Origin: Agaricus subrufescens
Lineage: Eukaryota; Basidiomycota; Agaricomycetes; Agaricales; Agaricaceae
DNA: 64,000 nt
NCBI GenBank assembly: GCA_029945375.1
Contig: CM057061.1
Location: forward strand, 2,666,001-2,730,000
Direction of reading: 5' to 3'
The notes beneath the pieces are model-generated. The model ran no database searches. It was given only the letters and a program-made list of their open reading frames with translations, and was not told the DNA's origin. Below are positions 1-19,159 of the stretch, one piece after another (the first letter of the stretch is position 1; the number at the start of each line of letters is the position of its first letter). Both the position numbers and the translations under genes were made by a program.

Positions 1-1290
1 TAAACGTGAGCGCGATGTAGCTAATGAAAAGTTAGTCCTTAGGTTTCCAAATAGACGATGTATGCCACTCACGATCCAGACGGCTTAGACAGGGAGAGTC
101 AGCCAGTGAGTCCAGGTCGTGCCAAATCAAGGATTGCTGCGATAGTGGTAACAAGACATGTTTGCATTGTGACTGAAAAAAATAACGTTGTAAGCCACAA
201 AACTCTCGACTAAACCATATACAACAGACTTCGAATGATGCGATTGATCGTCATATCTGTCTGTCGGAAACCGCTCCTGTGCGTGCGCTGGATATGGTGT
301 GGTTTACTCAAAGTCTGTTGTAGATGAAGTACGCCTCACCCTAAAAATCAAATGAGTATAAGATCATATTACCCTGAACTGATTACTCACAGATACCGTA
401 CGAGTGTGCACAATGGATGACCGGGCATAAAGCAAACTTTTAGATAATTAACTTTTGACTAACCACTGGTTGCAAACTCCACAATATTTATTAGAGTGTG
501 ACGCCATCCATAGGCGATAGAATAAACGTCCGGACAGGTACAATACCGAAATTTTGATCTAGGACACATCAGTATTCTACCATCCTACTGTAATGCACAG
601 CGGCCTTGATGATGCTGCTGACTGCAATGATGTCGGGCAGTGTATGCTCGCACAACCTCTATTCCTATACATGCAAGAGGCAAATGATGAAGCTGACCTG
701 CTCAGCCTAGTGTCATGGTGAATGACGAAAATTGTTTCAACGATTTATCATTGTATTATAAGTACGTTTCATCAGTTGTTCAAAATCCGCATGTTGCGAT
801 AATCAGACAAAGTTAATGACGGCCGCGAGGCCATATAAATGGACTTTCAATCCCACGTGACGTACAGCCATGAATTCTTGGTTTGTTTCCAGGATCGATG
901 CCAATCACGTAGTTCCATCATAGAGTAAAAACAGTAGACATAAACTGACGTATACTGGAGCGCGGATTGCTGCTACCTTCAGCTTAGACAACATGTTCCT
1001 GACTATGGGTTGTGCGAGCTCTTCGCTGTGCGACCATGTGTCCCAAGTTCAAAGCAGAGGTCACTTCCTCCTCCTATCTTAATAACCTCAGACAATCAAA
1101 TACTATATCATTCCAGCTATTCAACCTCTCATTTTATAATCCTACTATGTCATTGAACTGGGACTCGCATAAATAGTCGTTAAAACTTGTGATACACTCC
1201 GTTATATCCTGACATATCTTACGAACCTCCCCCAGCTCGACAAAAATGCTATCACGTCAAGCAAATGAGAATCAATTCCTATCACAAAGA
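1..1290. other. no gene recognised; left edge
   Basis: No long open frame and no recognisable protein on either strand. This is where the large last exon of F-box relic D would be expected on the minus strand, but only stop-riddled sequence is seen. A faint resemblance to that exon around 960-1100 (minus) is too weak to call. Confidence 0.5.
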
Positions 1291-5117: not shown

Positions 5118-6384
5118 CGGTTGAATGTTGGTTGAATGCTGCAAGCGAGTGCATACTTCTTGCATGTGAATATATGCGGGTTTCTCATCGAGTAGGAGGT
5201 TATTCGTGGTTCATGATCCAATGCATGAAGACTCGTTTTGCCGTTGGAACCTAGCACTTGTAACTCGCGCCATGAGTTCTTACCACATGTGAAATTTTGC
5301 AACACACGCTTCACTATGCCAGAACTGATTACGGACCAAAAACATGAAATGCTACTGATTAATTGAGAATGACAAAAATGATAAATCACAAGTATGCGTT
5401 TGTCATACAGCTAAGCCGACCTTATGATCATATGTGTCACTTAGTGATGAGAAACTAGTTTCTTTGGTTTGAAGATGAGTACTGTCGTAGTGCGTTCCAG
5501 TAAAATAATGACCAGCTTGTTATCCCCGGGTTGATCATCTTCTCCCAATATTGACTGGATATCCCGCAACTCTACGTGAACGTACGTGAACGGACACTTC
5601 TGATCGTTGGATGTTTCCCGGTGATATAGAATCAAGCATTATTTGTGGCTAATTAATGAAATCAGCACTAGAAAGTGGATGATATATGAGGTAGATAGGT
5701 TTTATATCATACCTTGCCTCTTGGGCATCGAGAGATGGAGATATTATGGTTATCTTGCCAACCAGGGCTCGTCAGATTCTGATCATGATTAGATTGTCCA
5801 TGTCCCTCGGTACATAGTTGATTCTGGGTCGAGTTCAAATCGTACCTCCATCCCCGTCGCGCATTGAGACTGCTGATCAAGGAGTTCGTAGAGCTTGGCG
5901 AGGGAAAGGTTGAATAGTAGGTGCCTACAATTCAACGAGTTGGTCTTTTTTTCTTATTGTTATCAGTTTACTCACGTCCCAGATGACTGAAAATTCGAGT
6001 GATCGGGTTAGCTTGAACCGGTGCAAACTAAAACTGAGATGTTCCTTACGCTAGCGAGGAAAAATGCCAAGTCAAATATGGCTACTACGGAAGTGATTAA
6101 GCCAGTTTGTACGGTCACTAAACAGAATTGGGATTACAAGTTTCAATATTTCTATTTTGTCAAAAAAAAAAAAGACAAGATTATTGCGCACTGCGGATGA
6201 TGCAGTCGATGACCATGTTCGACCCCTTGAACCCTGACTTGTGCTTCCGCTATGCGTAATTGAGGTGATGAATAGCTTGCTAGAATTTCATAGATAAGCT
6301 TACCCTGATGTAGGAGTAAGCCAGCGTAATTCCGACATTATGAAGTGGTCACTTACAAGTGCCACACGAGAATTGCAGCGATCG
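5118..6384 (-). pseudogene. duplicated 3' part of DUF6534 gene
   Basis: This segment is an inverted copy of about 18150-19440, containing the last exons and downstream flank of the DUF6534 gene. Introns are still present, so it is a DNA-level duplication and not a retrocopy. The terminal-exon equivalent (about 5635-5441, minus) retains the ELRDIQS and DDQPGDNKLV stretches but is frameshifted relative to the intact gene. Homology starts in the exon ending in the ILVWH segment (6384) and stops about 75 bp before the sequence upstream of F-box gene A. It replaces the downstream part of F-box relic E. No start or N-terminal membrane segments are present, so it is not expected to encode a functional protein. 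Confidence 0.8.
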
Positions 6385-17148: not shown

Positions 17149-19159
17149 ATGGCGGGCCCGGCGGAGGTTGCGTATGTTTTTTTTTTCATGTCATCTCAAG
17201 CCCAATTTTATCTCAATTCCATCGATAGTCACGGACCGATGCTGATTGGCACGGTGTTCAATGTCCTCCTATTTGGTATTATGATCACCCAAGTATACAT
17301 CTATTACACAAACTACAGGCGGTGAGCCGAGACTATTTCTGAGACAGTTGTCAGGCGCTGACTTATTTTTATGCAGCGACAAACTCTTCATGAAACTCCT
17401 CGTACGTTACGGCCGTCATGCGATGAAGATCTCAAAGTGATATTAAATCACTCAGGTTTTCGCAGTATTCCTTGCCGACGCAGTCAACACTGTTTTCGAC
17501 GTGACGTACATGTATGTGTGTCTGATTTTGCACTTCGGTATGGTACCTGTTTCTATAGTGCCTACTATTAATTACTCAAGAAATTTGACCACTCGCAGGG
17601 GACCCCGACTACTTAGCCGTGACAAATTGGCGTATGTCCTTGTATTCTGTCAATGTCATGATTCATCTCATGTTATTCCACAGAATTTGCAACAGGTGAC
17701 GAAGCCTCTCGGTTTTAAAAATGCACAGTTTAGCTGAAGTATACTTGCGGTGGAAATATAGATCCTGCCTTGACGGTAAGTCTAGCATAAGATGCATCAC
17801 AGTGGCTTTGAGCACTAACCATTCGATATGAAGGGTTTAATCTCGTTGATGGTCCAGCTGTTTTTCGCTTGGAGAATCCACGTATTGACATCCAATCTAC
17901 TATTGGTGGCTGTTGTTGTCGCGCTTGCCCTTGCATCCGGGGGTACGTTCAAACCTATACCAATACTACGCTATACACTGCTGACCCCCTTGTAGTGTGT
18001 GCTTTTGTTACATCCTGGGAGGTCACGGTTATCCCACAGTTCGTCAGATTCCAAGAGTTCCAGGCGAGTCGGAAGTTACTATTTCAGTCGTAACATCCTA
18101 ATAATATCTATTGAAGGGCGTCGTAATTGTCTGGTTAGCCTGCGGTGCTGCTGCGGATATCACGATCACTGCAATTCTCGTGTGGCACTTGTAAGTGACT
18201 CGCTTCATAATGTCAGAATTACGTTGGCTTACTCCTACGTCAGGGTAAGCTTATCTATGAAATTCAAGCAAGCTATTCATCAACTCAACTATACATAGCG
18301 GAAGCACAAGTCAGGGTTCAAGGGGTCGAACATGGTCATCGACCGCATCATCCGCTGTGCGTTATAATCTTGTCTTATTTTTTTTTTACCAAAATAAAAA
18401 TATTGAAAATTGTAATCCTAATTCTATTCAGTGACCGTACAAACTGGCTTTATCACTTCCGTAGTAGCTATACTTGACTTGGCATTTTTCCTCGCTAGCG
18501 TAAGCAACAGCTCATTCTAAACTATTCGTGCACCAGTCCAGGCTAACCTGATCACTCGAAAATCTCAGTCATCCGGGACGTGAGTAAACTAATAATAACA
18601 AGAAAAAAGACCAAATGACTAATTCGTTGATTTGCAGGCATCTACTATTCAACTTTTCCCTTGCCAAGCTCTACTCGAATTCCCTCATCAGCAGTCTCAA
18701 TGCACGACGAGGGTGGAGATACGACTTGAATTCGACGCGGGATCAACTTTACACCGAGGGACATGGACAATCTAATCATGATCAAAATTTGACAAGCCCT
18801 GGTTGGCAAGAAAATCATAATATCTCCGTCTCTCGACGCCCAAGAGAAAAGGTACGAAAACATAACCCGGCCCCACCTCATATCATCCCCTTCTCAAAGC
18901 TGATTCCGTTAATTAGCCACAAATCATGCTTGATTCTATATCACCGGGAAACATCCAACGATCAGAAGTGTTCGTTCACGTAGAGTCTCACGAGTTGCGG
19001 GATATCCAATCAACGCTGGGAGATGATGATCAACCTGGGGATAACAAGCTGGTCGTTATCCCTGGAACACACTACGACAATACTCATCTTCAAACCAAAG
19101 AAACTAGTTTCTCATCACTGAGTGACACTTACGATCATAAAGTCGGCTCAGCTGTATGA
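17149..19159 (+). CDS. DUF6534-type membrane protein with a 1-nt exon
   Basis: Member of the DUF6534 family of multi-pass membrane proteins, abundant in mushroom fungi and of unknown function. Exons: 17149-17321, 17377-17401, 17456-17537, 17599-17631, 17684-17695, 17762-17775, 17834-17942, 17996-18063, 18117-18190, 18244 (one base), 18299-18356, 18432-18499, 18569-18579, 18638-18851, 18917-19159. The total is 1185 bp, 394 residues. The second in-frame ATG at 17188 is an equally good start (381 residues). Seen: about seven hydrophobic segments, with family-like stretches GTVFNVLLFGIMITQVYIYY, LVQLFFAWRIHVLT (written in the gene as LMVQLFFAWRIHVLT), WHLRKHKSGF, DRIIRLTVQTG and LAKLYSNSLISSLNARR, then a hydrophilic tail. 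The intron after FQEFQ has a GC donor (18064). A duplicated 3' fragment lies at 5118-6384. Confidence 0.85.

What the first reader, a model, noticed from the sequence alone, without database searches (positions are those of the whole stretch)
18191..18298. Single-nucleotide exon in the DUF6534 gene, conserved in its duplicate
Seen: the exon ending ...W-H-TT and the next exon (CGG AAG CAC...) need exactly one extra base to keep the family reading frame (W-H-L-R-K-H-K). The 108-bp gap reads as two normal introns: GTAAGTGACT...TACGTCAG (53 bp) and GTAAGCTTAT...ATACATAG (54 bp), separated by one G at 18244. With that base the whole 15-exon model is 1185 bp and open. The duplicated fragment keeps the same arrangement (ATCAG|G|GTAAGC, exon base at 6304). 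Single-nucleotide exons are known from very few cases, such as Arabidopsis APC11.
Basis: partly seen in the sequence, partly recalled or inferred. Interest (0 to 1): 0.9.

Follow-up and report, generated by a model that had tools for sequence, protein, structure and literature searches.

The report
One-base exon in mushroom receptor-like genes
A mushroom gene for a membrane protein appears to contain an exon only one base long, and the same one-base exon recurs in about twenty related genes of this genome, so it looks like an old, inherited gene structure that gene-finding software often gets wrong.

Summary
Window 18191-18298 is two canonical introns (53 and 54 nt) around one G at 18244; the 15-exon DUF6534 (PF20152) model is open and 1185 bp. 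The duplicate alone is weak support, but this genome holds more. All 21 subfamily genes or fragments that I found have AG|N|GT at the homologous place, each completing a Leu codon. A spliced aligner with a profile of 120 homologs chose the 1-nt exon in 18 of them; three have a fallback acceptor. Paralogs outside the subfamily have one phase-0 intron at the second intron's place; in five the missing base is the last of a 143-nt exon (68+74+1). So the first intron was probably gained one base upstream of an older one. In other species, 19 of 45 deposited gene models in the matching tree clade have a wrong length at this junction, against 0 of 13 intron-free contig proteins there and 1 of 50 models outside (one extra residue, downstream). 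No RNA of this gene was available. One-base exons are known (APC11, VPS55, Fusarium CYP621A); this is a new, multi-copy case.

The parts
17149..19159 (+). DUF6534 gene, 15 exons, CDS 1185 bp with stop (394 aa)
   Evidence: model; PF20152 E=3.2e-20; spliced aligner reproduces exons 1-14 and the first part of exon 15
18117..18190 (+). exon 9 (74 nt), ends in the first two bases (TT) of the Leu197 codon
18191..18243 (+). first intron, phase 2, 53 nt, GTAAGT...CTTAC...CAG
   Evidence: GTRAGT donor in 17 of 17 genes tallied
18244..18244 (+). single-nucleotide exon 10 (G), third base of the Leu197 codon TTG
18245..18298 (+). second intron, phase 0, 54 nt, GTAAGC...ATAG; the older of the two introns
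18299..18356 (+). exon 11 (58 nt), RKHKSGFKGSNMVIDRIIR
5130..6384 (-). 5'-truncated duplicate of the gene with the same 1-nt exon arrangement (exon base at 6304)
6304..6304 (-). 1-nt exon base in the duplicate (G on the minus strand)
1..407 (-). third, 5'-truncated DUF6534 fragment running off the window start; introns 390-341 and 339-288 around a single G at 340

Best explanation
G18244 is a real, constitutive 1-nt coding exon. Two ordinary short introns are removed, probably one after the other because 3' splice-site factors for the first and U1 for the second cannot sit one base apart at the same time. The product joins TT-G-CGG, giving Leu197-Arg198 and the family reading frame. The structure arose once in an ancestor of this DUF6534 subfamily, when a new intron entered between the second and third bases of a Leu codon, one base upstream of an existing phase-0 intron. 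Shown: sequence, frame need, AG|N|GT in 21 of 21 subfamily members found in this genome, single-intron outgroups. Inferred: splicing in vivo, that it is constitutive, its order (intron 1 first is favoured), and a single gain.
For: Two canonical introns of normal size and an open frame only with the G. A profile of 120 homologs that leaves this gene out makes the aligner pick the 1-nt exon, 31.8 score units above the best path without it. AG|N|GT at the same place in 21 of 21 members, the base always giving Leu. In the 35 models (410 exons) the only internal exons under 6 nt were 17 copies of this one; one search added an eighteenth (L073) and one unrelated 5-nt exon (L081). Outgroups L050, L062, L063, L066, L072 and L074-L077, L080 have one phase-0 intron at residue 197, and a 143-nt exon = 68+74+1 in L062, L063, L066, L072 and L080. 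Family length at the junction is kept in 25 of 25 lgn/jgi contig proteins. Gene models that deviate here: 19 of 45 inside the clade, 1 of 50 outside (Vararia, one residue downstream). What looks like one Agaricus bisporus gene differs just here in three records: one drops 8 residues, one skips 25 (=75 nt = 74+1), one is exact here (P0011, P0125, P0105). Donor asymmetry: GTRAGT in 17 of 17 first introns, 0 of 17 second introns.
Against: No transcript of this gene or species could be examined. Three paralogs (L044, L046, L048) have a fallback acceptor that avoids the 1-nt exon at exact family length, and the aligner prefers it there. L049 and L034 have fallbacks costing only one or two residues. 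In L035, L036, L040 and L041 the best path without this exon still uses two introns around another tiny exon (1, 13, 4 and 4 nt by my arithmetic), at 16.5 to 23.8 lower score. An in-frame alternative donor (CTC|GTGTGG at 18180) exists in the window gene, losing VWHL. In the 16 relevant genes 144 of 1600 shuffled intervals (9%) also give the aligner some 1-nt exon.
Confidence: 0.9

Rival explanations
1. One 119-nt intron with an upstream in-frame donor (CTC|GTGTGG, 18180) to the 18298 acceptor; the protein lacks Val-Trp-His-Leu and no 1-nt exon exists.
For: It keeps the frame and is the best alternative path for the window gene. Three gene models of other species (P0015, P0017, P0033) show this 4-residue loss.
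Against: Poor donor; the aligner scores it 31.8 units lower; junction length is exact in 25 of 25 lgn/jgi contig proteins; it does not explain the conserved AG|N|GT.
Confidence: 0.04
2. A base is missing from the assembly, or the gene is a frameshifted pseudogene; the intron is a single 108-nt one.
For: The duplicate and the third fragment in the window are 5'-truncated.
Against: The same one-base need recurs in copies on four contigs (C5, C8, C11, C13) with diverged introns, and the window gene is open over 1185 bp.
Confidence: 0.02
3. A stwintron: nested introns of which the internal one interrupts a splice element of the external one.
For: Two adjacent introns, about 108 nt in all, needing consecutive splicing, as in fungal stwintrons (PMC5639578, passages read).
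Against: Both introns have intact GT...AG of their own, and a coding base remains between them. A [D1,2] type needs an external donor split after its first G, but the base before the first intron is T.
Confidence: 0.03

Closest known systems
Fusarium CYP621A one-nucleotide exon (PMC12940212)
   Same: Fungal nuclear gene; single G in AGGGT between two short introns; found through a frame gap and length conservation; gene models wrong at the site.
   Different: There: ascomycete P450, middle base of a Gly codon, confirmed by RNA reads. Here: basidiomycete DUF6534, third base of a Leu codon, about 20 copies in one genome, outgroups with one intron, no RNA.
Plant APC11 and VPS55 1-nt microexons (PMC4674806, PMC8831610)
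   Same: 1-nt coding exon conserved across homologs and missing from annotations; in most monocots the APC11 base lies inside one large exon, comparable to the outgroups here.
   Different: Plant genes of few copies, shown by cDNA, RT-PCR or reporter constructs; APC11's base is an A in a 422-nt interval; VPS55 has isoforms with and without it in some plants.
Fungal stwintrons (PMC5639578)
   Same: Two adjacent short introns that need consecutive splicing.
   Different: In a stwintron no exon base remains between the introns and a splice element is interrupted; not so here.

Membership tests
single-nucleotide coding exon | one base flanked by canonical 3' and 5' splice sites of two introns of workable size | tested here: met
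   53- and 54-nt introns, CAG|G|GTAAGC
single-nucleotide coding exon | the base is needed for the family reading frame | tested here: met
   frame breaks without it; score loss 31.8 without it
single-nucleotide coding exon | conserved in homologous genes | tested here: met
   21 of 21 subfamily members found in this genome; three of them also have a fallback acceptor. Other species: inferred only.
single-nucleotide coding exon | the base is present in mature mRNA | not testable with these tools
   no RNA of this species; 13 of 13 intron-free contig proteins of other species in the clade have the exact junction length
DUF6534 (PF20152) | Pfam profile match over the curated cut-off | tested here: met
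   73.5 bits against a cut-off of 28.2, residues 183-267, spanning the 1-nt exon
stwintron | internal intron interrupts donor, branch point or acceptor of an external intron | tested here: not met
   both introns have complete GT...AG and one coding base lies between them

The most novel reading that the evidence does not exclude
The 1-nt exon arose once, by gain of an intron one base upstream of an old intron, in an ancestor of a large Agaricales branch of the DUF6534 family. It has been kept through speciation and repeated gene duplication ever since, so that many genes of this candidate receptor family carry it and are often misannotated. That would make it the largest family of single-nucleotide exons known and a direct record of how such an exon is born.
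Probability: 0.65. Interest if true: 0.75.

Novelty: new member of a known kind. Interest (0 to 1): 0.64.

Why it matters
In what my searches listed, single-nucleotide exons of nuclear genes are documented for plants (APC11, VPS55) and Fusarium (CYP621A); a placozoan mitochondrial cox1 case was also listed. Here one is carried by about 20 paralogs of one mushroom genome, with outgroup paralogs that show the state before it arose. That makes two questions testable: how an exon of one base originates (intron gain beside an intron), and how the spliceosome handles a 3' and a 5' splice site one base apart. It also has a practical side: deposited gene models of this family, which has been proposed as candidate fungal GPCRs (PMC12842992, passages read), often deviate at exactly this junction.

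Tried and rejected
Tandem duplication of one intron as the origin: first and second introns are no more alike than shuffles in most of 19 genes (closest: L033, 11 of 200 shuffles as good, and the window duplicate, 20 of 200). This does not exclude an old duplication.

DNA of other mushrooms: scans of viral contigs and genome contigs with A1 found no relative.

Transcripts of this gene: a full-length search (120 of 434 hits listed) and one with a 162-residue piece (24 hits) found nothing near-identical; the best full-length hit was 60% identical.

C11:782029, a second exact match of ATCAGGGTAAGCTT, showed no likeness to the gene by eye and was not among the protein search hits.

Conservation in the window's duplicate as evidence of selection: weak, since a motif of this size would often survive 15% divergence.

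Papers: searches for single-nucleotide exon, stwintron, 'microexon'+'fungi'+'1-nt', DUF6534, six spellings of one-nucleotide exon, and 'microexon'+'Basidiomycota'. In the titles and abstract openings listed I saw no 1-nt exon of a basidiomycete or of DUF6534; most of these papers I did not open, and the library lacks most subscription papers and all bioRxiv.

Full report
What is there. The window lies in a 44.65-Mb genome (C5:2666001-2730000). The gene at 17149-19159 has 15 exons and a 1185-bp CDS, and its product matches PF20152, DUF6534 (73.5 bits). Exon 9 ends in CACTT; then come a 53-nt intron, a single G at 18244, a 54-nt intron, and exon 11 starting CGGAAG. Removing the whole 108-nt interval as one intron shifts the frame and gives stops; with the G the sequence reads W-H-L-R-K-H-K as in the family.

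Unbiased modelling. I wrote a spliced protein-to-DNA aligner that scores a profile of 120 homologs (the window gene left out; for query residues that fewer than 10 homologs cover, the window residue is used at half weight) and lets introns fall anywhere. Run on both strands of 40 own-genome loci (L033-L072) plus the window gene and its duplicate, it gave 35 models above score 120, with 410 exons. Seventeen internal exons were shorter than 6 nt, and all 17 are the 1-nt exon at residue 197. Forbidding it costs 31.8 score units in the window gene and 4.0 to 31.8 in the others; the lowest are the fragment L051 (4.0) and L049 (8.3). In L035, L036, L040 and L041 the next-best path again has two introns around another very small exon. 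Eleven more loci gave seven models above 120: L073 with the 1-nt exon, six without; one of these (L081) has a 5-nt exon elsewhere, so very short exons are not wholly confined to this place.

Conservation. AG|N|GT stands at the homologous place in all 21 subfamily members that I found: the window gene, its duplicate, L033 to L049, the fragment L051 at window 407-1, and L073, modelled from residue 174 on. Every place in the genome-wide protein search (itself a lower bound) was fetched and modelled; of the PF20152 hits a number of weaker, remote ones were not. The base is G in 19 and A in 2 (L037, L038). Every product is Leu: TTG, CTG or CTA. L044, L046 and L048 have a fallback acceptor (TGGAG) that would bypass it at exact family length, and the aligner prefers that. 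Their closest relatives L045 and L047 carry two corresponding extra codons (TGG GGG), have no such AG and need the 1-nt exon, so I think the fallback is incidental; this is inference. The copies are related and some pairs (L044/L046, L045/L047, L040/L041) are near-identical, so 21 is not 21 independent cases.

Chance. Dinucleotide-preserving shuffles of 19 intervening sequences gave a usable YAG[GA]GTRAG in 0.008 genes on average, against 17 seen; AGNGT in 1.1 against 19 seen (L042 and L049 are the two with weaker sites). A harder control against my own aligner: with shuffled interiors it still chose some 1-nt exon in 144 of 1900 trials. Observed scores were equalled in 2 of 1600 trials for the 16 genes in which it chose the exon in the real sequence, and in all 300 for the three fallback genes.

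Origin. Paralogs outside the subfamily tell what came before. L050, L062, L063, L066 and L072 have one phase-0 intron of 56 to 71 nt at residue 197, the place of the second intron; so have L074-L077 and L080 (L075 and L076 score just under 120). Ten more remote ones have a phase-0 intron aligned at residues 195-196 (L056, L058-L061, L068, L069; L079, L081, L082). Others have an intron elsewhere or none here (for example L052, L064). In L062, L063, L066, L072 and L080 the exon before it is 143 nt, which is 68+74+1 of the window gene. So the first intron is probably the newcomer, placed one base upstream of an old intron. First introns have GTRAGT donors in 17 of 17 models, second introns in 0 of 17. 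The first donor lacks G at -1 in all 17, which may explain its need for a full GTRAGT (the intron at residue 243 shows the same pairing); the asymmetry also fits removal of intron 1 first. Both points are inference. In the protein tree, made without the junction columns, the 18 full-length own-genome members fall in one 76-row clade (SH-aLRT 94), and the 14 own-genome genes without the arrangement fall outside. The duplicate, L051, L070 and L073 are not in the tree. It was a quick LG search with several long branches among the outgroups.

Other species. I had no mushroom DNA but this genome. Deposited gene models give indirect evidence. Among the 120 homologs listed (of 434), length at this junction differs from the family in 19 of 52 models that I class as Agaricales (deviations from -11 to +15), in 1 of 43 other models (Vararia P0086, one extra residue downstream of the TGF motif) and in 0 of 25 lgn/jgi contig proteins. 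At the other introns such deviations are fewer and mostly of 1-2 residues, with a few of 18-21; introns 1 and 2 share one set of 13 of 52. Inside the tree clade it is 19 of 45 models against 0 of 13 contig proteins (Fisher p = 0.005); outside it 0 of 50 as I counted (p = 5e-8), which leaves P0086 out, or 1 of 50 with it. The contig proteins are unbroken over a gene with about 14 introns, so I take them for transcripts; but truncated mis-spliced ones would not have been found, which favours this result. What looks like one Agaricus bisporus gene appears in three ways (P0011 lacks 8 residues; P0125 lacks the 25 residues of exons 9 and 10; P0105 is exact at this place, though it has an insertion elsewhere; P0011 and P0105 are 99.5% identical over 197 residues), and one Armillaria-type gene in three ways (P0039, P0054, P0062, 94-98% identical). 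A second search brought 21 more proteins; by eye nine deviate at this junction, three of them from Mycena (P0134, P0136, P0138), a genus whose earlier rows lie just outside the clade and do not deviate. So the lower boundary of the trait is not fixed, and a wrong gene model is not proof of a 1-nt exon.

Comparison with what is known. Known 1-nt exons: Arabidopsis APC11 (PMC4674806, first of three parts read), APC11 and VPS55 across land plants (PMC8831610, passages), Fusarium CYP621A (PMC12940212, two of three parts read), which has the same AGGGT. Nelson and Syed propose loss of a base near a junction, rescued by a cryptic AGGGT in the intron; here the outgroups suggest insertion of an intron beside an intron, though loss of one G from TTGGTGAGT plus growth of the old intron gives the same end state. 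Stwintrons share consecutive splicing but fail the definition here.

Verdict. Observation confirmed; interpretation supported at about 0.9, short of RNA. A new member of a known rare kind, of more than usual interest because of its copy number, its traceable origin and the pattern of annotation errors it predicts.

Noticed in passing
window 1-407 (minus strand), continuing to G000:C5:2665933: A third DUF6534 fragment, whose alignment begins (residue 192) close to where that of the duplicate at 5130-6384 begins (residue 188), also with AG|G|GT at 340.
   Followed up: partly
window 5130-6384: The duplicate matches only from window 18163 onward, inside exon 9, and the aligner skipped residues in its LAKLY stretch, so it is probably a pseudogene fragment.
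   Followed up: partly
window 17684-17695, 17762-17775, 18569-18579: The same gene has further micro-exons of 12, 14 and 11 nt. Among the 18 full-length subfamily models the 14-nt one recurs in 18, the 12-nt one in 13 and the 11-nt one in 13 (14 nt long in L044-L048).
   Followed up: partly
window 18064-18116: Intron 8 of the window gene is a GC-AG intron (GCGAGT); most of the other subfamily genes tallied have GT there.
   Followed up: no
G000:C5:2.39-2.69 Mb, C11:0.39-0.40 Mb, C13:0.19-0.24 Mb: Large local clusters of DUF6534 genes; C11 and C13 hold near-identical pairs (L044/L046, L045/L047), and L062/L063 on C8 have zero-length branches in the tree, so recent segmental copies or unmerged haplotypes.
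   Followed up: no
public proteins P0008, P0011, P0013, P0015, P0016, P0125 and others: Deposited gene models of this family deviate at one junction, in a pattern that a missed 1-nt exon would explain.
   Followed up: partly
L081 (G000:C7:1440200-1442500): A remote DUF6534 paralog was modelled with a 5-nt exon away from this junction; not examined further.
   Followed up: no
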